Assembly (NCBI GenBank): GCA_964017235.1
Contig: OZ024931.1
Span: 122,213,530-122,277,529 of the forward strand
DNA: 64,000 nt
DNA from: Sabellastarte sp. h YS-2021
Lineage: Eukaryota; Annelida; Polychaeta; Sabellida; Sabellidae
Reading direction: 5' to 3'
Numbering within the stretch: the stretch's first letter is position 1; each line of letters starts with the position of its first letter. The translations under genes were made by a program, and so were the position numbers. A model generated the notes under the pieces. The model worked only from the letters and a program-made list of their open reading frames with translations, did no database searches and was not told the origin of the DNA. Below, piece after piece: positions 1-62,844 of this stretch.

Positions 1-775
1 AATTATCTCTGTTGGAGAAACTGATGGTAAATATTTTAAAGATACTTTTCTTTGTATATGTAATGAACATACGGCAAATGATTGAATTCTGTGCATTCAT
101 TACATAAACAGGGAATCATTTAGTCAAAAGATTTGCCATGAAATTCTCCATACAGATTTTTTCTTCAAAACTTAGAATATACCAAGTCTCCCTGATTCGA
201 GGGTCTTGTAAATCTGAGTATTGACATTTTCAGAGCATCTACCTTTTACTATCTAAGACACAAAATGATGTTTTTATGTTCATAGTTTATAAAATAATTT
301 TGACTGGTACATCATAGAATATTTGGAGGTGAAATAAACTGGTAAACAAAGAGTTAAAACTTACAACCTACAAGATGCTTTTTACTTTTTATCTTTAATT
401 CAAAGGCACTATAGCATAAATATCCCATATTTAAGATTGATAGCAAAGGCTCCAAGATACACAGTTTGACTAGCACCAATCTGAAGATTAGGAAGCTCTC
501 AAGTTTGACTCCAACATAGGGACAACAGAAAAATATCTGCTTTGTGGAAAAGATTAAGGTGGATGACTCAAGCAGCTTTAAGCAGCGAGAAAAAAAAACA
601 ACAAAAAAACAAAATATGTCAACTACACAAAAAACATTGCCTCTCTACAAAGCTAAATGATTTAAACATAATCACTTCAACACTTCAGCATTTTCAGTGA
701 TTTCTAACCAATATAATGATAGTTTTATCATTTATTACGACAGACTGATATCTGCTGCATAAACTGCAGACAAAC
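1..775 (-). other. SLC15A4-like intron 6, partial
   Basis: Begins with the donor gtttgt at 775-770. AT-rich with A-runs (586-612). I see no exon, hairpin or known repeat here. Confidence 0.6.
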
Positions 776-993
776 CTGTGCATATGTACATGAATAGAAC
801 ACTCCAGTGAAGAAAATAGGTAACATTCTGAACTGTGACCTGACTCCCTCCACCTCCAACTCTGGATACAACCCTCCATGTTTCTCTGAAGCATAGTCCA
901 GAAATGAGGGCAGCTTCTGTTGTTCTTTTAAATGTTTAAATTTATGCTTTACTGCATCGATGATCAGCTTATGTTGTCTGATCATTACACTAC
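776..993 (-). CDS. SLC15A4: SLC15A4-like coding exon 6
   Basis: 218 bases. It encodes a charged cytosolic loop (SVMIRQHKLIIDAVKHKFKH... LPSFLDYASEKHGGLYPELEV) and the start of helix 7 (RMLPIFFTGVFYSCTYAQ), which corresponds to human VPVFLALIPYWTVYFQ. Acceptor tggcag, donor gtttgt after CACAG at 776. The next exon should begin with the family's MQSTY-like segment; it is not visible in bases 1-775 and so lies off the window. Confidence 0.9.
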
Positions 994-3900
994 CTGCCAG
1001 GAATAGATAACAAATGTGTAATTGCAGGATGAATGACAGTTTATGCTAAAACTTGGTGTGATATCACAATACAATGTATAAAGGTCTAGTTAACACCCAG
1101 GCCCCAGTGTGATGGCACTAAAATAAGCTTTGGTTTACCAACCTAAAAGACACTAAAAATAAGCACTGATGTCATGAAACCCTAAGGTCAGACAAATGAG
1201 TTTTAGTATGAAATGAAACAGATTAAACAGCAAATGAAATCATGACAGTTATTCTTTCAATAATCATCCTGAATAACGGGTAGTTATCCTTTCAATAATA
1301 GCACTAAATGATGGTTAGTTTTTCTTCATGTGTGTTAATAATCCTGAATAATGGATCACCACTACCATGTAACATTTACCTGTTCAATTTGTTTAATATA
1401 TACTGTTTTCAATGTCTATAAAGACTATAATCCACAGTTGCAATATTTACAAGTCTCTGTGCCGTGACCCCGATAAGTACAACTGGCTATACGACTCCAG
1501 AACAATGAGTTTGTCTTGTGCACCTTGGACTGCTTCAAAGAACAGATTAAGCACTGTCATAAAAAATACATTAAAAAAAGGAACATTAAAAAGAAAAGAT
1601 TAAGCATAATGAAAATTTGATTAGATTTTATCTGACATTACCCTGAGGTGGAGCTTTCTTGTAACTTGACCGGGGTATGACGAAGAGAACCACAGACAAA
1701 AACATGGCACAGGCAACAACCAGGTAGCCAAGAGCAAAGCTAATTTCTTGCTGGATGTAGGCGAGCAGTGTGAAAGCAAGGGCACTTCCCACATTAATAA
1801 ACCAGTAATACCTGCAAATGTACAGAAACAAATGATAATGTCTGACAGTCACATTTACATTTGTCTTGTGCTTTACATCATTTATGTATACAAATAAAAC
1901 TAGAAATATAAAGAAAAGAAAAAAAACTAATATGGACACATAGACATGATCATGCTGCAGTCAAAGCACCTTACATACAGCTCTGCCTAGTAGAAATCAC
2001 TTCACTCTTTGGTGGAAGTCAAAACCAAGGGCCAGATTCATGAACAATACTCAGACAAGATGACTTTAGATCTAAGTAAGGGAAGTTTTTTCACTTAACT
2101 AAGTACTTTTTAGCATTGGTATTCATGAAACAATACTTAGATAATGTCACCTTAGATTTTAAGTAAGGGAAAAAACCTCTAACTCTTTAGGTACGGTTGT
2201 GTCAATGAATCTGATTGGCCAAGAGCTATGGAAAATTTGGTTTATACATTTGGCTGTTTATGATAATAACCCTCTGCAAACAATGTTGGATGTAAAAGCT
2301 TTATATTACTGTGGGATTTTCAACAGTAATGCATGTTAAATTAGTGTCATGTTGAAAAAGAGGCCAAGGCCTGCTGCTTACTGGCAGCAAGCAGCAACTA
2401 GAAAAATGTTTTAGCTAACAAAAACTAAGCGTCCCAAAAAGGTTCAATGCAATATAATATATAGTAGAAAAAAGTTTTTGAAAATAAAAACATGCAGCAC
2501 TGAGAGAAGAAGTGAAAGTTAAGCAGACAGTGTGGAAGTTTATCCATTAACATGAAAGAAAAATTTAAGCTTTATTTTGTTTTCTATGGTCATAAATTGT
2601 GAAAAGTTAATTGAATAAATGCTCAGGCTCAGAATGCATAAAGCATCAATACTTATAATAGGTTGAAAGTTACACCATGACAATACTTAATTAAAGAGTA
2701 ACAGTGCTCTATAAATGCCATATATCTATTTACATTTTCGAAAAAGGCATAGTAAAATTTGAGCCTTTAGAAAGGCAAGAAGTTTATGACACAATGCTTT
2801 GAACACATCTATGCCAATGAGTAAATAAAAGGTCAATGTTCACACAAGCCTATTTATACCTTATGAATAATGCTCATTTCTATTTATATATAATTGCCAG
2901 TCTTTGATGAGTCCCCAGAGAATTAGTCCACTGGGTATATGCTGATAAGGCATAAAATCAATAGTTAATGTGTCTCCCCCAACACCCCCTCTCCCCTTGT
3001 TTTAGTCTATGCATCAAGAAATGCTCATACAAGGAGTCAGATGTTATCTTTATCTATGCTCTCTTGAAAGTGTCAATGATAATAATAATAATAATAGTAG
3101 GATTTATATAGCGCAAAATTGATACAAATCCTCTAATGCGCTTGAGTCCAAGAAGGGAGAGTCCAGGGACAGGCATGGGTCGACATCTAAAAAGCGCCCG
3201 CCAGGGTATAACTAAGGTGGGGGGGGGGGGGGTATGCCAGCCTAAACAAGTAGGTCTTTAGCTGGCTTCTGAAACCATCTATTGTTTGCTGAGATCTGAC
3301 AGTCTGTGGCAGCTTGTTCCATTCGGCTGGTGCAGCTACTGCAAAGCCACGCCTTCATATGTGCTTATTAGGGCGGGTTGAGGAGATAGATAGCCTGTTG
3401 CCATGAGTGAGACTGCTCGATCTTATTAAAGCTGAAAGATATGGGGGCTGTGAAAGATTAATAGCCTTGAATACCAAAATTGGGAGCCAGTGGAGTTTTT
3501 TCAAAAAGGGTGTAACATGATTTAACGATTACGATCTGATTTAACGATTACGATCTCTGATTTTGGCTTTCTGCGTCTTAGAGTCTATCATTAGATAGAG
3601 ATTAAGCGCTATAAAAATAAACTATGTATGAATGACTCATTTTGTCAAGTCTGAAGATGATGCGACAAAGAGCATTCTGGACTCTCTGTAGTTTGGCTAT
3701 GTTGGACTTGCTTACCCCATAGAGTAAAGAGTTACAGTAGATATGCAGATTTTATGTATAAATAAAGGACATAGTAAAGGGGGAATCCAGTAAAGAATAT
3801 GTTTGCATTGCTGAGTTATTAGTTTACTGCAGAAGAATGGAAGTCAGAAGAAATGATAATGAGCTGAAAATGGGAATTTATAAATGTGTCATTATCAAAC

Positions 3901-6900
3901 TGCTGCACTAAAATAAGTTGGTAAACATTTGGACCCAGTTTTTTACAATAAAATAAGCATAATTTGATGCATATCATAATTTTAGATAATGACAACAAAA
4001 TAGGAATGTATTTTGCCTGCTTTAATAGTATGTATAAGTCGTGAGTGCAATTTCAAAAAGTTACACCCTTTGCACTAAGATATGAAAATAACATTAAGAC
4101 AATGACATCATTAATATTGAAATATTAAAGTAGAAAATCTATTACCCCACTGTGACGAGCTATTAAGACTCTTCACATATGGGTTCCCACTACCTCTTAA
4201 AAATTGTAAAGCTGTAAAATCAATAATAAAGAAGATATGAGGCAAAAACAGAAAAAGTGATAAATTTGTCTTGCTTTCTAGACTCTCCACATATGGTTTC
4301 CTACTACATCCCAATACATTTTATGGCTCTAAATGCAATACTTAAGAAGATAATAGGGGGTTCACATGAATTTTAAGCTTTCTGGTTGTTAGGTGTGAGA
4401 AAATCGCTCAAAAATCAGTCATTTTTCATCAGATCGCTCCCAAAGTCAAATCAACTCGCGTTTTTGATATTATGAACATGTGTGTATAATTACAAGCTTC
4501 TGTGGTCAGTAGATTTTCCTGAGCGGCGATGACAGGCGGGTGTACCCAAAAAATCATATGATCATATGACCGTGATAAAGATCAAAGGTCAAATTTAAGC
4601 ATGTGGAAAACTTTTCCAACGCCTACGGTATATTACTGCCAAATATGGTTAAAAAGCTTCCAATAATAAGGGAGATATTGAGGAGAGGCCATAATGCGGC
4701 GGTGAGGAAACTGACGCGAAAACAAATAAGCGCCCTTTCAGGGATGCTAAATTATGTGGTCACCCAGTTGATATCAAATTACTTAATTTGACATCCATAA
4801 AAATAACTTAATTGCACGGTTTTCAAGATACAAGCATTTTTGTGTTTTGCAATTTTTGCGAAAAATTCGAAAATTCAAAATGGTCGCCATTTTTGGCAAG
4901 ACGAACATTTTTTGACATTTGGGTAAACTACTCTGCAGAGATACAGTATGGGTCAAAAAATTCGACTAAACTGCTCTATGTTACACAGTTTTCAAGACAC
5001 AAGTACGTATTGTTGTGTTTTACAATTTTTGAGAAAAATTCGAAAATTCAAAATGGCCACCATTTTTGGCGAGACAAAGTTTTTTGAAAATTGGAACCAC
5101 TCTGCATATACCCTGTGGATCAAAATTTCGTCGAAATCGCTCTATCTCACTCCATTTCCGAGATAAACACATTTTTGCGCTTTACGCAGAAATTCAAGAT
5201 GGCGCCAAAAGTGGCAGGAAAACGTTTTTCTGAAAAAGTCGCCAGTAGACTCTGCATATAGCCTGCGGGTCAAAAATTTCGTCAAATCGCTCTTTCTAGC
5301 TCCGTTTCCAAGATAAAAGCCTTATTGCATTTTATGCAGAAATTCAAGATGGCTGACAAAATTGACGGGAAAACGATTTTCGGGGAAAGTCGTCAGTAGA
5401 CTCTGCATATACCCTGTGGGTCAAAAATTTCGTCGAAATCACTCTATCTCGCTCCGTTTCCGAGATAAACATGTTTTTGCGTTTAACGCAGAAATTCAAG
5501 ATGGCCGCCAAAATTGGCGGGAAAATATTTTTCGGAAAAAGTCACCAGTAGACTCTGCAGATACCTTGCAGGTCAAAAATCTCGCTCCATTTCCCAGATA
5601 AACACGTTTTTGCTTTTTCAGCGTTATGAAAAATCATGGCATTTAGTTAATCGTTAATAAGTCGGCCATTTTGTGTTGGATCACTTCCAAAAGTTAATGA
5701 TTTCCAGACATTTATAAAATGACCCTACTTGCCAAATTTCATGTGAATAGGTGAAGTGCTTTTTAAGTTATCATCCAGACAAGCACACCCTTTTGAAAAA
5801 CATGTTTTGGTCATGTGACTTCTCTGATTGGTTGGGGAAAAAAAGCTCCATACCAAGTTTTAAAAAAATTGGTACAGTAGTTTCTGAGGAGAAGAGGCTG
5901 GAAAAATTGTTGATGCCGCCGCCGCCGATGATGAAGCCAACCAATGCCAATAGCTTACGGCCAGTAAGCTAAAAATGGCGGATTATTAAAAAAAAATCAC
6001 AAAATTCACATCTTTTCCTTCATACACACAAAAAAAAACAACTGACAATCGTTTCCTGTTAGGACATCCACAAACTTAATACGGTAGAAGTTGAAATTTT
6101 CACTAGGCATTAATTGTAACTATTTTATCTGATGAGTTTGGAGAGTGAAAATTAATTCCTTGTGAAAATTTAAATCTATATTTATATCTCAAGTAGAATC
6201 TAGCCATAAGTGAAAAATAATTCCAGTGAATTTAACCACTTGGATAAATAAACCTCCCCATCCCAAAACAACACCATTATTGCCCAATAGTTACAAACTA
6301 AATCATGCGATACCAACATCCTGTCCTCCCCAGGTAGCTTCAAACCTAACTTAAAAACTAAGTAGCGGTTCTAAGTTCAGCTTAGAGTTAGGGGTGTTCC
6401 TAAGGTCTATGCACATCTACATACTAATATAAACAAAATCTATTCGATATGTATAAGTTACCATCTGGAAACTAAATGCACGACAATTACAAATCAACAT
6501 GTGACTCATACATATCTGCAAGCAGGCAAGCACAAAAAATAAATAAAATACAAACCTGTACACAGACCGATAAATGTGATGGCACAATGGTTCACTTAAG
6601 CCCAGGAAAAATCAACAAATTCACATGCATATAAACTTGGTACTAACAGAAAAGGAGAAGGTTTTTATGTCTTTCCAATTACATGAACCAATCTATTATT
6701 GCCTTGACTTTGGTGATGCCCTAAAGCCGTACTTTTTTAACCAGACTGATCATAGAACAATTGTCAATGACTTTGTCACTTGAGATATAATGCATGTTCT
6801 ATGGTAGTGATTAGGTAAGTAAGCCTTTGGTCAAAGCATACACTGTACTGCTAATATATGAAATTTACCAGTTAAAGAAGGTTCTGACCATATCATTCCC

Positions 6901-9149
6901 CACATCCTCCACTTGTTGTGCACCAAATGGGCTGACATTGGACTTGATGCCAGCAGTACCTAAGGCCACCATTACAATAGATGTAATAAAATAACCCCGC
7001 TTGAAGTCCTGTTTTAGAAAACAAAGAAGTACAGTAAAAATTGCAATATTTTCTCTAAAACACAAATCAAGCATTACAACATAAGCTTTTGTCACCCTTA
7101 AGAAAGTAATAAGAAAAGTTAATGAAATATATGCTTCTTAATGTCTTAAATTGTGTTATGCATAATAAAGAATACTGTATCCAGGTTTTTAATCGGGAAT
7201 AATAAATAAATAAAATCATGTAAAACATACCAAATTTAATCCATAAAGTGGATTACCAGACAAATGTGCATAATCTATGGACACCAAAACCAACAAAAAC
7301 GTACCTAAATAAAATATATAAAATTCAAAAATGATTCAGAAGAAGTATAAATAACAGGATAACAAGATGCAAAGCATTTTTCTTGTATTATAGGAACATG
7401 CATCAACAGAGAAACAATGAACAGTTAGAGATTCGTTGATGAGGTTATAAATATGAAACCAAAACAAATAGAGTAAGAAATCTAAAATTCGCCAGGAATC
7501 TAAACTTCGCCACCTCTAAAACCTTAGTTAATTTTATGAAGAAAATGATGTTTTGTCTGAAAATTGGCATTTTTCAGTTCAAAAAGCCTTAACTTACTGT
7601 ACATTCAACAAATCTCACCTCAATTCATTTATTTTATTAGTATTTCCACATGTGGCGAATTTCAGATATGTGGCGAATTTTACATTTCTTACTCTATATT
7701 GTTTATTCATCTTATGTCCTTATTTTATAGAAACAAACAAGTGTTGCAGAGAAGTTAGCATACCCGCTGTATAAATTAGTATTCCTCCATAAATAGTATT
7801 GTATTTCCCTGCAATGGAGTCTGCTATCCATCCTCCAAAAACTGGAAGAAAATAGGACATCCCTGTGGAAAAACATGCATATGTTTATGGAACTGAATAC
7901 ACATATATTGTAATAAATACACGTTTTAAGATTGCAAAAGTATTCCTATGGTTATCGGTGGTGTTTGTCTTACAACTAATAACTGGTTATGATATTTAAA
8001 AGCAGGTGTTTCCATCATTATGAGATATTCATTTTTGTCCAAATTAATGTCAAGATATCACCAGTATACAGTCAAAGGTAAAAAAGGCTACCTATCTCTT
8101 TGTATTTGACGCAATACTAAGTTGTTTTGGCCTGGGTTAGCTTTGTCTGACAAAACTAATTTCAATATTTACCTTATTTATAGTTAATGAAGACTTTACT
8201 AAAATACATCTTAAAACTGCTTTGTAACCAGGTATTCACTGTTTTTTAAAATCAACAACCAGATTTGGAAATTGAAACTAACTGTGAATCTTACAGGTGT
8301 GGAATGGGTTTAAACTAGAGTTCATAAAACTTGCATAATATTTTAATATTTCAATATCAACAAAGTGTTCTGAGTTTCAATATCAATATAGGAATAAAAC
8401 AACTGTCAATACTCAATATTGTTTCCAAAATATCTGAAGAAAGTTCTTTAATTTATAACTACTAAACAATAAATTCACTTACTTACGGTTTACATTATTA
8501 TGTTGTTGTATAATTTGATGTGTTTACATTTTGATTTCAATGTTATATGAACACTGTATTGATTTTAATATGTTACTCAATGTATCATAACAGACCAGTA
8601 ACTTAGAATAAGTCTACTTGTGATAAATTTTACAGGCAGAATTGATTTTTCAATACCGATTGATATCAAAAGCCAAACTGAAGTTTGATATTGATGGTAA
8701 AACTCCAGAATGAAGAGACTCCTGAATGATAGATAAAAACAAAGAAATATAAATGTGGTCATGACATTCAACCTGGAAAAAAGACACTCAGGGAAAACAA
8801 AACAAAATTCTTCATAAAGACTAAATGATATATATAAAAGTTTCATAACAATCACACCTGTAAAAACCAAGCTGAAAGTGAGGGCCTCAGCACTACTATA
8901 CTGCAAGACATTGGTACAAAAGATGACCATACTTGATGCTATACAAAAGAATGCCATTCTTTCACACATCTCTGTCAGAATGATCAAAAGTATCTGAACT
9001 CTCCAAGATACCTTCTTCTTTGCCTTTTTTTCTGATTTACTTTTACTTCCAACATTGCTGCGTTGCTTTGGTTTGTCCTCACTAGCACTATTATTGTTAT
9101 AACTTCCAAGTAATGGGGTTTCTTCTGAAACTTCTGTGTGGCCTGCCAT
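776..9149 (-). CDS. SLC15A4: SLC15A4-like proton-coupled peptide/histidine transporter (six coding exons, 3' part off window)
   Basis: Six exons join in frame to give 331 residues: 9149-8858, 7862-7764, 7304-7231, 7008-6869, 1811-1642 and 993-776. Each is bounded by AG/GT sites, and the exon lengths (292, 99, 74, 140, 170, 218) keep one frame. The family is POT/PTR2, 12-helix proton symporters; the SLC15A3/A4 members move histidine, di- and tripeptides out of endolysosomes. Visible features: an acidic dileucine signal EETPLL (residues 9-14), as in endolysosomal SLC15A4; the proton-coupling motif ExxER (E60-R64) in helix 1; the PTR2 signature GGWIADSIAGKYN in exon 2; GTAGIKSNVSPFGAQQV in exon 4; and FFNWYYWFINVG across exons 4-5. 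Human SLC15A4 has the same order of blocks. The ATG at 9149 starts the only frame and directly precedes the sorting signal. The C-terminal half lies left of base 1. Family is certain; SLC15A4 rather than SLC15A3 is inference. Confidence 0.93.
994..1641 (-). other. SLC15A4-like intron 5
   Basis: 648 bases between splice sites gtaatg (1641) and tggcag (994). It contains imperfect copies of a 'tcctgaataa(t/c)gg' word at 1266-1355 and nothing else I can name. Confidence 0.6.
1642..1811 (-). CDS. SLC15A4: SLC15A4-like coding exon 5
   Basis: 170 bases, encoding YYWFINVGSALAFTLLAYIQ, QEISFALGYLVVACAMF and LSVVLFVIPRSSYKKAPPQ. It matches human SLC15A4 [20 protein letters not shown] at the same place and carries the second PTR2 signature (YYWFINVG). 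Acceptor ttgcag, donor gtaatg. Confidence 0.95.
2036..2175. repeat. 85-bp tandem duplication, dispersed family
   Basis: Two tandem units start ATTCATGAA at 2036 and 2121. Both continue with a CAATACT(T/C)AGA word and a CTTTAGAT/CTTAGAT word. A related copy is at about 13800-13875 (ATTCACGAAACAA plus GTGACCTTAGATCTAAG), so this is a dispersed family. Confidence 0.6.
3076..3520 (-). mobile_element. LINE fragment, 3' end of a reverse-transcriptase ORF plus tail
   Basis: On the minus strand this encodes LHPFLKKLHWLPILVFKAI near 3500 and then, after stops, RGFAVAAPAEWNKLPQTV, DGFRSQLKTYLFRLAYP near 3370-3230. These are the C-terminal blocks of the L2/CR1-like LINE found whole at 43677 (there LHWLPIKYRS, APMIWNDLPDEVRS, FRSKLKSYLFGKAYPP). 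It is followed by a short 3' UTR containing AAGCGC and GCGCTATATAAAT and by a (TAT)n tail at 3097-3078. It is 5'-truncated and old. A run of 17 or more G lies inside at about 3215-3232. Confidence 0.8.
3557..3630 (+). mobile_element. LINE 3'-tail fragment
   Basis: Contains CTTAGAGTCTATCATTAG, AGAGATTAAGCGCTATAAAA. This matches the 3' UTR end of the LINE at 43677-46960 (CTTAGAGTCTGTCTTTTG, GAGATTAAGCGCTATAAAA). Only the tail is left. It abuts the oppositely oriented LINE fragment and a 24-base tandem duplication (tttaacgattacgatctg) at 3518-3556. Confidence 0.7.
4375..5972 (-). mobile_element. Tandem-repeat-bearing element with terminal hairpin (TAGCTTAC family)
   Basis: Read on the minus strand, the 5' end at 5971 is a perfect hairpin (arms TAGCTTAC and GTAAGCTA, five-base loop). 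It is followed by TTGG, a GGCGGCGGCGGC run, TTTTTCC, CTCCTCAGAAAC and AAAACTTGGTATGG. The body holds about five diverged units of roughly 160 bp (4812-5620). A degenerate inverted copy of the terminal word (AAGCTTTCTGG) at 4374-4384 marks the likely other end. It lies in SLC15A4 intron 4. The layout resembles Helentron-associated/pearl elements; no protein is encoded. Confidence 0.55.
4812..5620 (-). repeat. Diverged ~160-bp tandem units related to the 169-bp repeat
   Basis: Units carry, on the plus strand, TTTTTGTGTTTTGCAATTTT, AAAATTCAAAATGG(T/C)C, ACTCTGCAGAGATAC and (TTT)CGTCGAAATCGCTCTATCT. These are the reverse complement of the key words of the 169-bp arrays at 32.8-34.1 and 42.0-42.8 kb. 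The first two units are closest; later units (5100-5620) are more diverged and have GAGATAAACAC(A/G)TTTTTGCG instead. Confidence 0.75.
5973..6868 (-). other. Rest of SLC15A4-like intron 4
   Basis: Apart from a short inverted stretch at 6350-6400 (CTAACTTAAAAACTAAG with TTAGAGTTAGG), nothing recognisable. The intron ends at the donor gtaaat below 6869. Confidence 0.5.
6869..7008 (-). CDS. SLC15A4: SLC15A4-like coding exon 4
   Basis: 140 bases, encoding DFKRGYFITSIVMVALG, then TAGIKSNVSPFGAQQVEDVG and MVRTFFNW. This is the most conserved block of SLC15A3/A4 (human: KANITPFGADQV...RRFFNW). Acceptor aaacag, donor gtaaat. The last tryptophan codon is split across the junction. Confidence 0.95.
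7231..7304 (-). CDS. SLC15A4: SLC15A4-like coding exon 3
   Basis: 74 bases, encoding GTFLLVLVSIDYAHLSGN and PLYGLNL, a transmembrane helix and following loop. Acceptor tttag, donor gtatgt. It joins exon 2 inside a glycine codon and ends in phase 0. Confidence 0.9.
7469..7696. mobile_element. Short inverted-repeat element with double 18-bp units
   Basis: Terminal inverted repeats of about 46 bp pair 7471-7516 with 7649-7694. Each arm contains two tandem 18-bp units: AATCTAAAATTCGCCAGG then AATCTAAACTTCGCCACC on the left, with matching units on the right. About 130 bp lies between, without coding. It sits in SLC15A4 intron 2. A TA dinucleotide flanks both ends (TA|GAGTAAG ... CTTACTC|TA), compatible with a TA target duplication. 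Confidence 0.8.
7764..7862 (-). CDS. SLC15A4: SLC15A4-like coding exon 2
   Basis: 99 bases, phase 1 to phase 1. It encodes MSYFLPVFGGWIADSIAG and on to GGILIYTA. This contains the first PTR2-family signature (GGWIAD..AGKY). Acceptor ccacag, donor gtatgc. Confidence 0.93.
7863..8857 (-). other. SLC15A4-like intron 1
   Basis: 995 bases between donor gtgtga and acceptor ccacag. AT-rich; nothing recognisable. Confidence 0.6.
8858..9149 (-). CDS. SLC15A4: SLC15A4-like coding exon 1
   Basis: Encodes residues 1-97: the cytosolic N-terminus with the dileucine signal, a lysine-rich stretch (KSKSEKKAKKKVSWR), helix 1 with ExxER, and helix 2 up to LVFTG. The donor follows ACAG at 8858 (gtgtga) and leaves phase 1. 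A possible 3' splice site (ttgtag) lies about 12 bases upstream of the ATG, so the 5' leader may begin in a separate non-coding exon that I could not place. Confidence 0.93.
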
Positions 9150-9977
9150 TGGAAGTAAAGCTACAACAAAATGTGTGTAATAACTACATGTACTTCAATA
9201 GTTAAATACAGCACGCAGCTATGTACATTGTTACTAAACATAAATAATTGTTTTACGTGAGAGATGAAGTTTGATCTTTCGGAATCAGATGAAATGCATG
9301 TATCTGTTTTGAAAAAGATTAAACACAAAAAAATTCACCACAATTAAAACTTCATCAAAACATTCAATATTGAATCCATATTAAGCTGAAATATATGTTT
9401 TTAGATTCTATCATAAAACTTTGACCAAAAAGTAACCATGCCACACTACCTAATTAAAAAGGCTAAAACAAATAAAACAAGATGCACTCAGAGAGAGCAA
9501 AATGCTTGACTCCATGTGACCAGTCTCTAAAGTGATATAAAGTATTGTAAGGAAGACAATAAAATAAAACCAAACATGTAAATTAATTTTTGAAGAAATA
9601 TCAAGTAGAAAGCCAAATTCATTAAAAATACATTGAAATGGGACCTTTGAAAATTCTTTAATTTTTGTATCCAAAATAAGATCCAGATCTTTCTTTTAGT
9701 AACTTCTTCCTTTGGCCAGGTCCTACCCACAAAAATTTATTAATAAAGATCTGTTCATTAATTCTTGAGTACTCTAAACACCAAAAAAAACAGACAAATA
9801 TACAAACAATTTGCACCCAAAAACATAAACTGCTGGTGGAGGTAAAATATAGCTTAAAAGTCACTTCTTGGTGAAAATCACTCATGGTAAATTTTTGTGA
9901 TGGACTGTCAAGGAATTGAAAGAAAAAAAGAGAAAATAAAAACAGAAATAATAATTAATAAAAGTGATGACTATACC
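9150..9977. other. Upstream of the SLC15A4-like start codon
   Basis: Should contain 5' leader or first-intron sequence of the minus-strand gene. I could not identify a promoter or a convincing first exon. AT-rich, no repeats seen. Confidence 0.4.
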
Positions 9978-29775: not shown

Positions 29776-30118
29776 AAAGAGTTTGAAGAAGACTTTTTTA
29801 ACATCAAAAGAAGAATCAATCTGGCTCCTCCTGGAAATCACACACTGATTATTCATAAAAGACATTTACATACATTAAAGACTAAAGATGCTCCAATCAA
29901 AGACGTTTTTTAGGACTATTAAACCCCTTGTGAGTGCAACAGTCGGAAATTTACAAAAGAAACGTGCAGTTCCCAATCCCAAGCAATGGCTCAATATAGC
30001 CTTTTTGAGACAATCAGCATCAGCGGTTTCAGCCGAACCCTTTCTCAATGGAAGTTCAGCTGTCTATGTGGAAGAAATGTACAATTCATGGTTAGAAGAT
30101 CCCAGGAGTGTCCACAAG
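29776..30118 (+). CDS. OGDH: OGDH exon with start codon: mitochondrial 2-oxoglutarate dehydrogenase E1, N-terminus
   Basis: OGDH is the thiamine-diphosphate E1 subunit of the 2-oxoglutarate dehydrogenase complex in the mitochondrial matrix; it decarboxylates 2-oxoglutarate in the TCA cycle. Coding is 29888-30118 (77 codons). Bases 29776-29887 are probable 5' leader after the acceptor ttcag at 29771-29775. The peptide starts with a basic, hydroxyl-rich mitochondrial presequence (MLQSKTFFRTIKPLVSATVG). It then reads AEPFLNGSSAVYVEEMYNSW and LEDPRSVHK, against human [29 protein letters not shown]. The donor gtttgt follows AAG, phase 0. The ThDP-binding core lies beyond the window. Confidence 0.95.
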
Positions 30119-51818: not shown

Positions 51819-51888
51819 TCTTGGGATGCTTATTTCCGTAGTGCCTCACAAGGGGCTCCTCCAGGTGCAGCATATACATCACCTCCAG
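51819..51888 (+). CDS. OGDH: OGDH coding exon 2
   Basis: 70 bases after a strong T-rich acceptor, encoding SWDAYFRSASQGAPPGAAYT and SPPG. Human OGDH has [20 protein letters not shown] at this position. Phase 0 to phase 1; donor gtatac. Confidence 0.95.
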
Positions 51889-53923: not shown

Positions 53924-54039
53924 GTGTTTCTGTAGGTGTTTCTGCACCTGTTCCTGTAAGTTTACCACAAGGTGGCCTGGTAGACACCAAGGTGATTGAT
54001 GATCACTTGGCAGTACAGGCCATCATAAGATCCTATCAG
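53924..54039 (+). CDS. OGDH: OGDH coding exon 3
   Basis: 116 bases, encoding VSVGVSAPVPVSLPQGGLVD then TKVIDDHLAVQAIIRSYQ. The second part matches human KLVEDHLAVQSLIRAYQ; the first is the variable linker. Acceptor tttcag, donor gtatac, ending in phase 0. Confidence 0.95.
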
Positions 54040-56029
54040 GTATACAGTATTTACATATGGATTACCGTTTGTTGTTATTGTTCTGTTAAGTGTAGTAACT
54101 ACTTTATGATTTATTGAGCCTTGCTTTAAAATTTAACTTATTTCTGTTTTAACAAAAAATAAATAAATAAAAATTAAATGAAATAAATATCATCTAAAGG
54201 ATTATTTTAAAGGAATCGTAATAACAGAATATTGAATCAATTGTTTCAGTTTGTTTGACTTGCTAAAGTTGCATTGTCCATGAAAGTTAAATATTATGAT
54301 GAATTTTTTTGTCTCTGGATGCTGTACATTATGTATCGCTGGTTCCACACTGCAAAGTTTTGCAATGCAGTGCATTATACAATATACATGTGGATATGTT
54401 AATTCTGGTATATGTGTGTTTTTTTGTTTTTTTTTTTTTTTTTTTTGCACACTCAGTTTCAATACTCTTTTCAGAGGGGGCACACACATATAATACCACA
54501 TATTTATACAGGAGAATGACACTACAACCAAGTATTAGGAAACCATGGATAGAAAATATAAAGAAATGGGAGATTAAAGTAATCCTTCTCTGTGTTGAAT
54601 AGTGATTCTGGTAATGCCATCAAAGAAGACCTGTAAAGCTCTTTCATGTTTTTTCAATCCACATTAGTGGGAGATAACCTCTATACCAGGTAGATCTCAA
54701 ATGTTCAATATGTTGTGGGATTTACTGTGTAGTATGAATGACACAGAGATAAAACTTAGATGTTCAATTGAATGGATGAAACATAGGGTTAATCATAGTG
54801 TAAGAGATGTGTAATTAGCCAGAGCAAATGAAATTTGCCAGCCAGGAAAACCCTCCCATTATTTCCTTTGAATTGAGGAAAATTTTTTGTCTTGCGTGAC
54901 AATGGTTGTCCACCTGTTTGATCTGATGCAGATATTCCATGAATGTAACTGAAGTCTGAACGAACTGAAGGTGTTTCTCCTGTTTCTTTTACTTTAGTAT
55001 TAATAGTGTATCCACACTGTTGAAAATGCTATAATCCATACTCTTTATTCACAGGTCAAAACCGACGGACCCCCAGTTTCCTGCCCAGATTGATGGGATT
55101 ATACTTTGATTGTTTTTGTCATCAACTATGTGATCATTGTAAAGCTTTGCTGATGATGTTAAGCATATAAAACTCCCCTGACAGATACATATATATATGT
55201 CTTTAAAAGTAGGTATTCTGTATTCATTATTTTTCACAGGACAGAATTTCACCATGCCACTTGTTTCACTTGTCATATTCTAGTTAAAATTTGGGAGTAA
55301 CTTAAGTACTTAATAATTTTATCACTTTCCATTGAACAGGTTTCCAAGTGTACAGTCTTTTTAATGTGACACAATTTTTTTTACAACATCAAGTAACCTA
55401 CGACACTGAATATTTATCAAGCCCTATCGTCACTTGCCACCATGTTGTTGAACACTTATTTTGAGAATTGATTTTTTTCAGGCTTCGTATTGCTGCAGTA
55501 TTATTGCTCATCAGTATGTGAATACCATGTATATTTCTGTGTGACGTAATTTAGAGTGTCATCATTATGTCAGAAAAAAAAAAAAAGAAAAAAGAAAAAA
55601 AAAAAAAAGAATTAGTCTTTTTACAGCTATGTTGTGTACCTCTTAGTATAGCTTATTTATTGTTTGAGTTGTTTATGCATAAGCATTGAAGATGTGACTA
55701 AGTGCATCACATATACTTTTGGCTGTCTAAAGTTAAAAGTTTACGTACCTTTTCTTTTTGTGTGTTTGGTAAATTTTATGACCATGACAGAATAAATAGA
55801 TAAATAATAAATAATTTAAAATCCAGCTCTTGTATCTTTGTTTCTAATTTTTGTAAAGAACATTTCATCAGAAGTCACTTGCAGTTGTAGCTTTGCATGT
55901 AGTGTAGAATTGAAACAATATCCATGAACTCAGGTTTTTTTTTTTTTTTTTTTTTTTTGTTGTATATTCTTGTTGCTGTATATTTTGCATTAAATAACCT
56001 CACAAACTAAATTCTCAAATGATACTCAG
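54040..56029 (+). other. OGDH intron 4
   Basis: T-runs at 54420-54446 and 55937-55958 and an A/G-run at 55575-55610. No element recognised. Confidence 0.55.
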
Positions 56030-56132
56030 GTTCGGGGTCACAATATCGCAGAACTGGATCCATTGGGAATTGCATCTGCTGACCTAGATAGTACAGTTCC
56101 TCCAGAGTTATCCACTACCTCATACAATCTAG
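56030..56132 (+). CDS. OGDH: OGDH alternative exon A (acidic, ADLD-containing)
   Basis: 103 bases, phase 0 to phase 1, encoding [20 protein letters not shown] and [14 protein letters not shown]. Human OGDH has [27 protein letters not shown]. The human DADLD segment is described as part of the Ca2+-sensing site of mammalian OGDH; here it reads SADLD. Acceptor ctcag, donor gtaggt. The exon at 62712 encodes a second version of the same segment. Confidence 0.93.
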
Positions 56133-57589
56133 GTAGGTTGTGGAGACCTGGCATTTACTGGTGGTGATACTGCATTGCTATACCTGCTATTTAAGGATAA
56201 GTGAAGCAGCTTGTAAGAAAATTTCTGTTTTTCCTTTGCGTTTGAATATACACAAATTGGGCAGGGTGTTGTCGGTATGTATGAAATAGATGCAAGGTTT
56301 TTGGTTATTTATTGCTTTTGCACAACTACTTAAGTAGTAGATATAAGTAGATAGCTTGTTGGTGGTCTGGTTGAATCATATGAGGGATAACATTTTGTTT
56401 TCTGTGTATCACAATTTGTATGATCTAATCAGCAACTGTTATAACATTACACAAACACTGATTTGAGTGTACTTTCAATACCATGTTTGTACACAATTCA
56501 CATACACCCCCACAGAAAAGAAAAAATATGAAAAACAGCAATAGATGTAGTGTATATGGTGTCTTATAAATAGTGTAAAGTCTAAGAGGGATTGCACAAG
56601 TGTAGTATAGTTTCCATCAGTTTGGTACAAGTGGTTAAGGTCTTGATGTTAGCACTTATAATGGTAAGTGTAAATCGAGTTCAGGGTAGAGTAGAGGGAT
56701 TCCAAAAGACAAGTACACAGTTACATTTTGAATATTGCAAGCAATCATTCCCACAGATCCACACAAAGTAGGAAAATTACTGCATTGACATAATGTATAG
56801 AATATATTGTCTGTTTGAGTGAAAAATTTAAAAAAAAAAAAATTTGCAAGGGTTTGTTACTTTTATGATCCTCCACTTTGAATAGTTAGCAAAGTAAGTC
56901 CATAAAACTCCATATTTACCAACACATTGGCTTTCACTTTGCTTGTCTATGAAATATCAGCCCCCGCGAATATGTCCTTACAAGAGGTACCCATCAAGTA
57001 TAAAACCTTCAGTTTTAAACTTACATTTCTTCCCCATTTCTTGGTGGATTTTCATCCAACAAAAATGAGCAAAAGCTCAGGAAAAGTGCCTTTTTAGTGA
57101 TGACTACCACAAATTTGTAAGTTGTGTAGTTCTCAAAACATATATATCAAATAGACACTTATTTACGCATAATCAGAAAAAACGTATCCATAGTAAAGGG
57201 AATAAAAACTAGCATCCGAGATGCCTATGCCCAACAACCTGGGGAAATAATGTTGGACACCATGAGATATTACATAAAAAAGCACAAGGATGAGGAGTCT
57301 TTGAGAACATACAGTGTAAGTTATGTAAAGGTGCAGGAGAAATAACACTCAGGAAAGAGAAAATATGTGTAAAGACAATTTAATAGCAAAATGGTAGCAT
57401 TAATTTATAAATTAAAAGTTATAAAGATGTAAACAAATTTAGCTGTCAATGCACTCAAGAAGAGAGCACAATTAGGTGAAATCGTAAAAGTACATTTAAT
57501 CGATGCAGCCATCCATATTGCTTTTTGATTGGATATATATCTCAAATGTGGCAGTAAAAAATATTCTGAGAGACCAAGGACAAAGTTTA
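56133..57589 (+). other. OGDH intron after exon A, first part
   Basis: AT-rich; I see no exon or element. Confidence 0.5.
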
Positions 57590-58255
57590 CACAAAGGTCA
57601 CACCATGAGGTTGCACACCTACACCCTCCAACCGATATACCTACCAAGTAATAATTTCTTACACCTTCTGGTTTCTCAGATATAACCCAGATAAGATTTT
57701 AAAGGTCAAGGTCACTGCAGTAAGGTCAAAGGCCACATCAAAGTCACATGATCACATTGTATGCCAATTTTCCTTCAGCCAATGCCCCTACAAAGTAACC
57801 ATTTTCAGCATTGTAAGTAGTTGTCACTATGTTAAGGAACTTAAGGTCAAAGCTCAAATCAAGGTCATAACATGATATTGCACAGTGCACACCTAGACCC
57901 TATAACCAATATCTCTACCAAGTATTAACTTCCTACACCTTGTGGTTTCTGACATCTATCCCGGACAAGATTTTAAAGTCAGTGTCACTATTGCAAGGTC
58001 AAAACTCAAATCATGGGTCACACAGTGACGTTGCACCTCTACACCTGTGTCCCTTCAAATATCAACTAACTACACAATGTGGTTTCCAAGATATAGCCAG
58101 GAAAAGATTGTAAAGGTTGAGGTTACCACAGCAAGAATATAGGTAAGAATATAGGTCATATCAGTGTCCCACCTTGACATACTGTATGAAAAAAATTTCT
58201 CTTGCTGCCCAGCCTACCACTGATCCAGTCAGACACCATGGGTGAAAACAGTGTT
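57590..58255 (-). mobile_element. Broken minus-strand copy of the ACCCCACAGCC-family element
   Basis: Four to five diverged units of about 146 bp. On the plus strand these appear as TTACACCTTCTGGTTTCTCA, AAGGTCAAGGTCACTG and GCACACCTACACCCT words. The minus-strand 5' side keeps the TGTTTTCACCCATGGTGTC words (about 58250-58230) but has lost the terminal hairpin. Confidence 0.65.
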
Positions 58256-58646
58256 ATTTAGACTTTATTTCTTGCTGCTTAGGTTAAATACAGCACATGC
58301 TGGATTCAATCCCATGTTTTAAGTAGTTTATAAGAAAACTGAAACCTATTTACTGACTGACAGGCACTGATCCAGCTGTATTCCATTTGCATACAATTTT
58401 AAAGACCGGAAGTGCGCAGTGAACGAAAATTTGTCTGTGCGCATAGAATTAGCACGGAGTAAAACCTCCAATAACGGCCCGCTTAGAAACGGAAGTGTTG
58501 TTTCGATTGCTCGATTGTATGTCGATAGTAAAATTGTCTACTTTTACGAGAGCGATTATGCATTCAAAACAATATGGTGGCGTCCTTGTTCGTGTCACCT
58601 CGTAAAAATAAATAGATATTTCTTTCAACCAGGTAGGCCAGTCTTT

Positions 58647-58812
58647 ATAATAGTAATAAATACCTCATGCTCGGGCGTTTGTTACAGGATATACGCCCGG
58701 CAAAATTTCCTTAATATTGCCCTCGCGCCTAACGGCGCTCTGGCATTATTTGGAATTTTTGCCGGGCGTATATCCTGTAACAAACGCCCTCACACTCAGT
58801 ATTTATTACTAC
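58647..58812. repeat. Long foldback hairpin, ~75-bp stem
   Basis: The left arm GTAATAAATAC, then GGGCGTTTGTTACAGGATAT, ACGCCCGGCAAAA, is inverted at the right (TTTTGCCGGGCGTATATCC, TGTAACAAACGCCC, GTATTTATTAC), with only a few mismatches and a short GC-rich centre. This is either a small foldback element or a stem-loop RNA gene. The sequence before it (58383-58620) is richer in CpG than its surroundings and contains ACCGGAAGTG. Confidence 0.85.
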
Positions 58813-61800
58813 ATCATAGTCGGTTTCCTGACATTCACTTTTTAAACATAACGTTTCTAAAATATTCAACTACAAAAAATGTTACATAATATTTTTTATA
58901 TTCTTACAAGATTGTCATTTTGTTTAAAACAAGCTCTTCACAAAGCATATCAAGGGTCATATTTATATGAGATATATGTATTGTGCATGCGTCTTGATAA
59001 CTTGTGTCATGGCATTTGTAAATCAAACATACCCATTTTTTTCGTCAAATTTCCGTTTTCTTGGCACTAGTTCTAAAATATGCAAAAGAACCACAACACT
59101 AGTGTTAAGCCTGTTTATTTTGATGCTGCATTTTGTCTGGTGCTCTTGACAAGTACCACTTGTATCAAGTGATACAAAATGTGACAAAATGTACTCAGTA
59201 CGCGAGTACAATGTACTCTGGCCCCAACCCTGGTACACATGGGCTTCAGATAGATACCAGTAAACTTCTGTATCTCATTCTTCCATGGTCAGACAAGTAA
59301 CAGATCAAAACCATGTGACATGGTAAGGTTGTTCAGCAACAGAGCAGCAATCAATGGAGGGAAATGAATGAACACTTTAGGATAATCTTTATGCTGCTTT
59401 ATTGAGATTGAATTTTTGTGTTGTAGAAGTATTTTCTTAAATTTTAAAAGCCACCTTATGGTGTGATGGTCCATTGTCCTGATAAATTTAAAGGTGTAAA
59501 AAAATGGTAAGCCCTAAAATGTTCACTCAATTGGACTGATCGTCAATAGCTAGTGAGTTTTAAGGAAGTACAGTAAGCAAGTCATACTTAGCCACATATT
59601 ACATCCCATTGATTGTAAAGTGATCAAACAGAAAATACTGAAATTCTGTTGAAATTATGATCACAAAAATATATAATTGTAATATCAACTCTTGATAACT
59701 GTTTCATGGCCTTTGGCCCCAGTTTTTCATTGTTACACTAGAATGGAATCATTGTAGTATGTCTAAAATTTTAGAAAGGTATGTTCAGTGACATAAAAAA
59801 GTCCCTGTCAATTCAATATATTGAGTGGAACAGATATTGGTAAATGTTCATTGTATTTATGACTTTCTGAACAGACTGAATGATACTCTACACTAAGATA
59901 CGAGGGTGTTTTCCAATTCAGTTATCTTTTGTTGGTCATACGTCAATTGCCCCATTATATTTCCTAAGTTCCTCATACGCTAGTATTTGTAATGTAGCAG
60001 GTTTCTTATAGGTTAAACAGACTACTTTGTAATAGCAACAATCTTAAGTGCAGTTAGTGTTTGCTACCTTTGAGAAGGCATTTTTCATAATGGGTGAATG
60101 ATTCAGAATATACATGTAATAGTAAGGACTGTTTCTACAAAGCCCAGAGTGCTGTATTGCTGTCATTTGTCAGATGACAAAGTAGGGCAATGTTTCTTGG
60201 TTTGTGTACACAGTATCACATGGTGTGAGTGGATTGTTTTTTATCTTGCTATGTGTGTTGTGGAAGTGTGGCATGTCTGGTGTATACTTGATTGTTGTTT
60301 GTGTGAACATCCTAATCCCACACAGATAAATCTATAATTATGTATGTAATTATTTTAACCTTTAACTATTCCCTACATACTTTTATAGAGTCAGTCATAG
60401 TTAACAATAGAGCCTCTTCCTTTTTAAATATTGAAAAATTTCTGTGTTAGATTTAAATTTCAGTTGGTATTTATTTGTAGCTGATCAATTTTATTGCTAA
60501 TAAACCCAGTTTAGGTACCAAAAAATATTTCCAAAAGTGGTACAAGGTGTAATTATTTGAAACTGATGATTTCCATTTCCTCACCCTTCATCAAATTGGA
60601 AATCAATTTTCTCAATTTATATGCTTAACTAAATTTTTTTTTTGACATTTTTTGCTGGTGTACCATATATTACTTTCAACCATAAGGAAACCTGTTTTTT
60701 TTTTTTTTTTTTTTTAAGGGCAATATCCCCCTTGTCAAAAAAGAAGAAACCAATAAAATCTCATTATATATGACACATAGCACTCAATTGACATAATTCG
60801 TTTTCGAGTGAAAAGTTCAGTATTAAGGTTTACACTGGTTTACAGCTGAGTTTACAGCCTTATGGAGTAGTTTGGAATTATATTGTCTGCAGGACTGACT
60901 CTATTAGGGGCTAAAATTTCTATGTTTCCGGGGATCATGTCCCAGTAGCTTGTGTTTGCTTGGTTTGACATTGAATAAATGTTGACCTTTGGGTAACCTT
61001 TGTTTTCAAGGTTTAGTGGTCTACAAATTGTATACTTTAAGTGACCACAGGCTTAATTGACTTTGACATTTTGACTGATTTCTCTTGTGTGTAGTATAAA
61101 TGATAGACATTTTATACGGTTCGATAACATGCCCTTGGAGTGCCGAGCCTGTAGAATTAAATACCTGTACAACTGCAACAAGTAATCTGCACTCTCCAGA
61201 TAGAGAAATGCACTTGTATATTCTTACCTCTTCATGTGTGTTTTTCTTTCATTTTCAGGATCATGGGCAAAGAATCTTGTTCAGATTCTTCCTTCCACTG
61301 ACCGTAGATACTTTGCTGACTTACATTCACTTAGTGCGTGCCTAGAGCTGTATTCACAATGTACTACAGAATATATCTGATGTCATGCGTGTGTACAGAT
61401 CAAATCATATTGGAAATTTTCTTTCCTTTGTTAATGAACCAGAAGTTTGACTTTTGTGGAAGCTATATTCAGGAATTTAGTTCTTTGGTATTGAAACAGG
61501 ATTCATTTGAGATGTACCAGGCATGACACATGAAATATGTTAATGACACCAGTTTAGCTCCAGTAGATTTTCCTGTTTAATATGTCCTGTTTACTCCTCT
61601 TTTTTAGTTGTTGTATACCTGAATGTACATGTTATTATAGTTGTTTCGCTTAGTTCTTCAGTTACTTTTCCCAAAATATCTAGAACTCTTTTTCTCACTA
61701 AGAAGAAGTTAGATTGGGATTTTGCAGAGAAACAAAACCACATGACCACCTTAAAAGTAATACTCTGGCTTGGTACTGATAAACGTCTTGTAAAGAGGGC

Positions 61801-62711
61801 AGTATTCTCCTCCCGGAAGTAGATGAGCATATTCAAATTTATGATGTGAATTTTTACATTATATAGTTCTTGAAATATAGTGGTAAACAGGTAGGCAAAT
61901 TATGTACTATTACCGGTATGTATTATCAAGTAAACTTATTAGCAAGGTCAGCAGGTAGGCACATGAGGACCTTTGTTATGGTAATTTGAGTAGACAGATG
62001 AGAGGTCAGCACTTCAAGCATGAGCCAGCTGGTCAGCAAGTGGATGAATTGCTGACCTGCTGACTTCAGAGATAGGTTCCTCAAGTGTCCACCAGGCCCT
62101 CTGCTTTTAGTTATTACGGGGAGGGGAATGCTGCAATGCAGCCAATGTTTCCATATGTTTGCTTGGTGCTTGTCACAGCTTTCCCTTGACAGGCAGTGCT
62201 GCTCAAGTTTTAACCTGGTATATTTGCTGTCTGCACCTGGTCTGGCTTATTTCTGTCTGTCCTTCAGATCTCATCCGTGGGAGTGACAAAGCTGTAAAAT
62301 ACATACAATGAGTATATTTTTGATCATTGATTTCCAAATAGATTCCAAGCAACATCCGGAGATTTTGGAGTTTTATGGCTTGTTTTGCTGTCTTGAAATC
62401 TGGGTACAAATTATTGATTCCACAAACTTGAGAAGACAAAAATTTGAAGTCATAGATTTCGGCATTATCAAAATACTGGCAATGCAGGCAGTTTGTATGC
62501 CAACATAGCATTTAATTCAAAATGCAGAACAAATGAGATTTAAAGATAGGTCGTGGAATTCTATCACAATCCCTATTTTGAAGGACAGATGTTAATAACG
62601 CCTTGGTAAAATAGCCCCCCCCCCCATTTTCTGTTCACACATGTTTGCATTTGTGTGCTCATGCATTTGTTGGTGCTTTTTCTTGTTGCGTGCTGACTAA
62701 CCTTGACCTAG
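58813..62711 (+). other. OGDH intron before exon B
   Basis: T-run at 60698-60716, C-run at 62614-62623. Candidate frames with splice-like borders (for example after ttttcag at 61260) do not match OGDH. The intron ends with GCTGACTAAC, a good branch-point word, and the acceptor cctag. Confidence 0.5.
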
Positions 62712-62844
62712 ATTCGAGGTCACCTGACTGCACATCTCGACCCACTCGGCATTCAGCATGTCAGTATACACGACGGGGAGCGTGAGGCTCTTTTTCAGTC
62801 ATACAAGTACCATACACTTTTCCCCACACATCAGTTCAAGTTTG
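62712..62844 (+). CDS. OGDH: OGDH alternative exon B (lacks the ADLD segment)
   Basis: 133 bases, phase 0 to phase 1, encoding IRGHLTAHLDPLGIQHVSIH, then DGEREALFQSYKYHTLFPTH and QFKF. It opens with the same conserved IRGH..LDPLGI block as exon A and then diverges, ten residues longer. Exon A followed by exon B would shift the frame, so the two must be used alternatively. Human OGDH/OGDHL also have an alternative version here (IRGHHIAKLDPLGISCVNFD). The next OGDH exon (FYGLDE...) was not found up to base 64000. Confidence 0.9.

What the first reader, a model, noticed from the sequence alone, without database searches (positions are those of the whole stretch)
56030..62844. Two mutually exclusive versions of an OGDH exon, one with and one without the Ca2+-site-like acidic segment
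Exon A (56030-56132) and exon B (62712-62844) both start with (V/I)RGH...LDPLGI, both enter in phase 0 and both leave in phase 1. They differ downstream: A keeps SADLDSTVP, aligned with the mammalian DADLD Ca2+ segment, and B does not. Joining both would shift the frame. Mammalian OGDH is known to have splice variants in this very region that alter Ca2+ response. Seeing the same arrangement here suggests an old, conserved switch between Ca2+-sensitive and insensitive forms of the enzyme.
Basis: partly seen in the sequence, partly recalled or inferred. Interest (0 to 1): 0.75.

Follow-up and report, generated by a model that had tools for sequence, protein, structure and literature searches.

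The report
Frame-locked alternative exon pair in OGDH
In this invertebrate genome the gene for a key energy-cycle enzyme carries two interchangeable exons of which only one can be used at a time, much as in vertebrates but in the opposite order, so the switch probably evolved twice; whether it controls the enzyme's response to calcium is untested.

Summary
Observation confirmed. One OGDH (E1o) gene runs rightward from 29888 and ends about 66 kb past the window. Exons A (56030-56132, 103 nt) and B (62712-62844, 133 nt) have AG/GT sites, enter in phase 0 and leave in phase 1; joining both or neither gives an early stop. B is open, found once in the genome and has fairly coding-like codons. A and B are alike only over 14 codons ((V/I)RGH..A.LDPLGI); behind that B is unrelated, not merely A without its acidic motif.

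The same gene holds a second tandem pair beyond the window (D1/D2, 155 nt each, 35 of 51 residues identical). Exactly 4 of 16 include/skip combinations, (A or B) x (D1 or D2), stay open to the end.

Vertebrate OGDH has mutually exclusive exons 4a/4b here, but the Ca2+-insensitive exon comes first and a short intron enforces the choice; here the acidic exon is first and the intron is 6.6 kb. That fits an independent duplication better than one old conserved switch. A has SADLD, not DADLD; Asp-to-Ala there abolishes Ca2+ response, and the effect of Ser is called unknown. No transcript data were available. New variant of a known kind.

The parts
29888..30118 (+). OGDH exon 1, start codon and presumed mitochondrial leader
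   Evidence: tblastn to OGDH and joined frame
51819..51888 (+). OGDH exon 2
53924..54039 (+). OGDH exon 3, ends in phase 0 (...IIRSYQ)
55935..56029 (+). Run of 24 T and AG-free zone (96 nt by the script's count) upstream of exon A, third longest of 19 in the gene
56030..56132 (+). Exon [35 protein letters not shown], phase 0 in, 1 out; the version closer to human OGDH
62712..62844 (+). Exon B: IRGHLTAHLDPLGIQHVSIHDGEREALFQSYKYHTLFPTHQFKF, phase 0 in, 1 out; divergent version with a weak 3' splice site

Best explanation
A and B are a pair of mutually exclusive exons of one OGDH gene, made by an old tandem duplication that now survives as 14 shared codons. Exon A is the default, ancestral-type exon. 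Exon B is a derived exon with weak splice sites that would need activation in particular tissues (inferred). Exactly one must be chosen, because both or neither shifts the frame into an early stop (frame shown; decay of such messages inferred). The choice swaps the segment after RGH..LDPLGI: 20 residues with SADLD in A, 30 unrelated residues in B. By position this is the segment that sets Ca2+ response in vertebrate OGDH, so the most likely effect is on allosteric control rather than catalysis (inferred, untested). The reversed order and long intron suggest that it arose independently of the vertebrate pair. A second frame-locked pair, D1/D2, lies 6-11 kb after the next exon, giving four possible full-length enzymes.
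For: Exon anatomy, phases and AG/GT sites. 4 of 16 combinations of A, B, D1 and D2 are open to the normal stop (1015 or 1025 aa); the other 12 stop at residue 171-300. Likeness above all 200 shuffles. B found once in the genome, and no gene or retrocopy elsewhere matched it (only best candidates are scored there). B's tail has coding-like codon use: 18 of 2190 overlapping open 30-codon windows of the two flanking introns score as high (a first run that counted part of one intron twice gave 1.1% of 449). 5 of 10 identical residues in A/B and 21 of 35 in D1/D2 are kept by synonymous codons. A and D2 are closer to human OGDH 8i0k than B and D1: bits A/D2 269.7, A/D1 259.7, B/D2 240.9, B/D1 230.8. 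AG-free zones: D2 121, B 97 and A 96 nt are the three longest of 19; four alternative exons against the other 15, one-sided p 0.003. B has the weakest acceptor of 19, D2 the second weakest, D1 the weakest donor of 19 and B the third weakest. Vertebrate precedent: PMC7969005 (abstract, passages, sections 24 and 34).
Against: No transcript was seen for either exon. Only 14 codons link A and B. A's own codon-use score is near zero (0.034; tail -0.001) and exons 1 and 3 score below zero, so that measure is weak on short exons. The AG-zone test was chosen after reading the vertebrate paper and seeing the exons; D1 (39 nt) does not fit it, and A has a branch-point-like site at the ordinary 28 nt. 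Not all alternative sites are weak: D1's acceptor, D2's donor and A's donor are good, and these scores rest on 14-15 training sites. A 200-base N gap (79514-79713) lies between D1 and D2, so that pair's spacing depends on the scaffold; there is no gap between A and B. Independent origin rests on order, intron length and one published survey, not on a tree.
Confidence: 0.8

Rival explanations
1. An old bilaterian switch: the pair is homologous to vertebrate exons 4a/4b and its order was inverted later or one member was replaced.
For: Same place in the protein and a similar contrast, acidic motif against none.
Against: Reversed order and 6,579-nt intron instead of a short one; Lottia and Amphimedon reported with DADLD and no duplication; convergent tandem exons in orthologous genes are common: common ancestry for 7 of 42 inspected human/fly events, 27 gene families with unrelated events (PMC9741552, section 15).
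Confidence: 0.12
2. Exon B is a decaying or never-used exon copy; the gene makes only the A form.
For: Weakest acceptor of 19 and third weakest donor of 19 in the gene; partial exon copies lie as debris in the introns after exon F and before exon M, so small local duplications do happen in this gene.
Against: B is fully open, keeps phase, both splice sites and 10 of 14 residues with synonymous change, and its tail has coding-like codons. The debris copies match only about 40-50 bases each, unlike B.
Confidence: 0.12
3. Real alternative exons (this can hold together with the best explanation), but the switch concerns something other than Ca2+, such as assembly, E2/E3 binding or stability.
For: A carries SADLD, whose Ca2+ affinity is called unknown; the whole segment changes in B, not just the motif; the E. 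coli chain 2jgd shows an ADLD string in the same stretch, a few columns out of register in the HMMER alignment, so ADLD alone need not mean a Ca2+ site.
Against: The vertebrate pair at this position is known to set Ca2+ response; a 2026 Drosophila paper treats the fly segment as a conserved Ca2+ site, by alignment (PMC12869514, passages).
Confidence: 0.45

Closest known systems
Vertebrate OGDH mutually exclusive exons 4a/4b (PMC7969005, 2021)
   Same: Same gene, same protein segment, alternative exons whose joint inclusion breaks the frame, one with a DADLD-type motif and one without.
   Different: Order reversed (A acidic first; vertebrate 4a Ca2+-insensitive first); 6,579-nt intron instead of a size-restricted one with branch points below a ~50-nt threshold from the 5' splice site; SADLD instead of DADLD; second exon pair D1/D2 in the same gene, not mentioned in the parts of that paper that I saw.
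Tandem duplicated exon substitution events in animals (PMC9741552, 2022)
   Same: Mutually exclusive homologous exons, mostly ancient, often convergent between human and fly, with muscle and Ca2+-transport terms standing out.
   Different: OGDH is not named in that paper's main text (find; supplements not read), and the A/B likeness here is limited to 14 codons.

Membership tests
2-oxoglutarate dehydrogenase E1o (OGDH) gene | Full-length E1o protein from one gene | tested here: met
   20-exon model, 1015/1025 aa open frame; best PDB hits of the N-terminal part are human OGDH 8i0k/7wgr
Mutually exclusive exons | Adjacent homologous exons with compatible outer phases | tested here: met
   (likeness limited to 14 codons for A/B; 35 of 51 residues for D1/D2)
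Mutually exclusive exons | Both or neither gives no functional frame | tested here: met
   12 of 12 other combinations stop at residue 171-300
Mutually exclusive exons | Transcripts with exactly one exon observed | not testable with these tools
   no RNA data; no retrocopy spanning the region was found
Vertebrate OGDH 4a/4b pair (as homologue) | Ca2+-insensitive exon upstream of the DADLD exon | tested here: not met
   A (SADLD) is upstream of B; vertebrate order as read from passages
Vertebrate OGDH 4a/4b pair (as homologue) | Short intervening intron with distant branch point near the 5' splice site | tested here: not met
   intron 6,579 nt; branch points themselves not mapped
DADLD Ca2+ site of OGDH | Asp at positions 1, 3 and 5 | tested here: not met
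   A reads SADLD, first Asp is Ser; B has no such motif
DADLD Ca2+ site of OGDH | Ca2+ activation of the enzyme | not testable with these tools
   needs an enzyme assay

The most novel reading that the evidence does not exclude
An invertebrate lineage evolved its own OGDH exon switch at the Ca2+-control segment, in the opposite order to vertebrates, and added a second frame-locked pair, so that one gene makes four differently tuned E1o enzymes: a case of convergent evolution of splicing control of the citric acid cycle.
Probability: 0.35. Interest if true: 0.7.

Novelty: new variant of a known kind. Interest (0 to 1): 0.5.

Why it matters
The vertebrate OGDH exon switch is argued (PMC7969005, abstract) to tune energy supply by tissue and to have eased the evolution of endothermy. 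A separately built switch at the same protein segment in an invertebrate would show that splicing control of this enzyme is a repeated solution, and the natural B, D1 and D2 segments would be new tests of what the segment does and whether Ser in SADLD supports Ca2+ binding.

Tried and rejected
Duplicated OGDH gene or haplotig as source of B: rejected, since A, B, C, D1, D2 and E were found only on C5 (one search also listed 5 weak matches on other contigs at E 2.95-7.8, taken as chance). A Pfam search for the E1 C-terminal domain also gave two exons of a related gene on C2, perhaps DHTKD1 (recalled); those two loci do not match A, B or C above noise, but the rest of that gene was not read. Fossil transcripts: one processed OGDH copy on C14 starts in exon J, too far 3' to tell A from B; no retrocopy of the 5' part was found. 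U12/U2 incompatibility or steric exclusion as the enforcing device: no GTATCC/ATATCC donors, intron far above the ~50-nt limit. Shared upstream or downstream sequences: not above shuffles (15 and 199 of 200 reach the real score for A/B, 30 and 53 of 200 for D1/D2). Third versions of any exon: none as whole exons in the + strand scan of 184 kb at score 46; besides the two pairs and the F and M debris it listed 4 unrelated-looking matches of 47-52, not followed. Literature on this pair in molluscs or other invertebrates: 10 searches showed, in the listings and the four papers opened (PMC7969005, PMC9177970, PMC9741552, PMC12869514), only the Lottia, Nematoda, Insecta and other remarks in PMC7969005 and the fly alignment in PMC12869514; the library holds open-licence papers only, and the Denton 2016 paper is not held. 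Phylum: the mitochondrial contig reads under code 5 with genes on both strands (gene names recalled), which did not settle it. Structure prediction was not attempted because spliced proteins are not contiguous in the DNA.

Full report
What is there. The window lies at C5:122213530-122277529 of a 1.79 Gb genome. An OGDH gene starts at 29888 and runs rightwards; with 120 kb fetched beyond the window it was modelled as 20 exons ending at 130431 in continued window numbering. The previous exon ends in phase 0 at 54039 and the next, at 69348-69448 (C5:122282877-122282977), takes phase 1.

Chance and coding. A's peptide against the 13.2 kb between A and the next exon finds B at score 53; the best of 200 dinucleotide shuffles is 38. 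In a + strand scan of 184 kb with every exon, B is the only match of 46 or more to A, though other exons gave 4 unrelated-looking matches of 47-52. Of 13 genome matches to a DNA pattern for GH..A..LDP, all 13 were read: only A and B carry (V/I)RGH..A.LDPLGI behind an AG; a repeat family with GHDVA.LDP(L) reaches 45 against A. Over the shared 14 codons 10 residues are identical, 5 of them through different codons. B's tail is coding-like: 18 of 2190 overlapping open 30-codon windows in the two flanking introns score as high. A's own tail scores near zero, so this test is only suggestive. B was found once in the genome and there is no assembly gap between A and B. The two tails after LDPLGI are not alike (831 of 1000 shuffles as good), and flanking introns do not align beyond chance.

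A second pair. Exons D1 (75634-75788; C5:122289163-122289317) and D2 (80663-80817; C5:122294192-122294346), outside the window, are both 155 nt, phase 0 in and 2 out, identical at 35 of 51 residues with 21 of the 35 through synonymous codons; the NG86 synonymous distance was undefined, as for saturated change. A 200-base run of N lies between them at 79514-79713. Of 16 combinations of including or skipping A, B, D1 and D2, exactly four are open to the normal stop, 1015 or 1025 aa; 12 stop at residue 171-300.

How it probably works. All introns of the model are GT-AG and none has a U12-type donor. The 6,579-nt intron rules out the steric device described for vertebrates, where branch points sit below a threshold of about 50 nt from the 5' splice site (PMC7969005). 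AG-free zones before the 3' splice sites are longest for D2 (121), B (97) and A (96) among 19, with D1 at 39; alternative against other exons p 0.003, a test chosen after reading that paper. B has the weakest acceptor, D2 the second weakest and D1 the weakest donor by a small site model of this gene, while D1's acceptor, D2's donor and A's donor are good. Shown: frame lock and weak sites of B. Inferred: A by default, B on activation, decay of mis-joined messages.

Which copies are old. Against human OGDH 8i0k, the stretch with A and D2 scores 269.7 bits, A/D1 259.7, B/D2 240.9, B/D1 230.8. A and D2 are therefore the versions closer to human. A is upstream in its pair, D2 downstream in its own.

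Comparison with what is known. In vertebrates exon 4a (Ca2+-insensitive) precedes 4b (DADLD), as read from passages on intron 4a (PMC7969005: abstract, passages, sections 24 and 34). That paper reports Lottia and Amphimedon with DADLD and no duplication, SADLD in several Nematoda, Rotifera and Insecta with unknown effect, and loss of Ca2+ response on Asp-to-Ala at that position. PMC9741552 (passages and section 15) finds common ancestry for 7 of 42 inspected human/fly tandem-exon events and gene families convergent. Reversed order, long intron and that record favour independent origin here. The Drosophila claim of a conserved site in PMC12869514 rests on alignment (passages). PMC9177970 was seen in passages only.

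Limits. No RNA and no relatives' loci were within reach, and no structure was predicted. Human OGDH letters were recalled; make the comparison with PDB chains. The phylum was not established.

Noticed in passing
continued window numbering 75634-75788 and 80663-80817 (L010 at 1634-1788 and 6663-6817; C5:122289163-122294346): Second tandem exon pair D1/D2 in the same OGDH gene, 35 of 51 residues identical, frame-locked; a 200-base N gap lies between them.
   Followed up: yes
L022 (C14:27509156-27512602), from locus position about 652: 5'-truncated processed copy of OGDH, 93-94% identical, spliced from exon J into the 3' UTR, with in-frame stops; it bears out the 3' exon joins.
   Followed up: partly
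continued window numbering 87197-87242, 87320-87358 and 102961-103012: Partial copies of the end of exon F and of the start of exon M lie in neighbouring introns, debris of small local duplications.
   Followed up: partly
L006, L008, L050, L051 (and, more divergent, L002): A repeat family whose chance reading frame holds GHDVAQLDPL, a mimic of the OGDH motif.
   Followed up: partly
L025, L026 (C2:60.7-60.8 Mb): Two exons of another E1-type dehydrogenase gene over the Pfam PF16870 cut-off, perhaps DHTKD1 (recalled).
   Followed up: no
window 58660-58800: Long inverted repeat, by eye a palindromic mobile element in the A-B intron.
   Followed up: no
window about 700-9200, minus strand: Stretches that look like exons of an SLC15-type peptide transporter (recalled; seen, not scanned against a family library).
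   Followed up: no
L048, L049 (C647, 15,345 bases): Mitochondrial genome with protein genes on both strands under code 5; gene names recalled. Might help place the species.
   Followed up: partly
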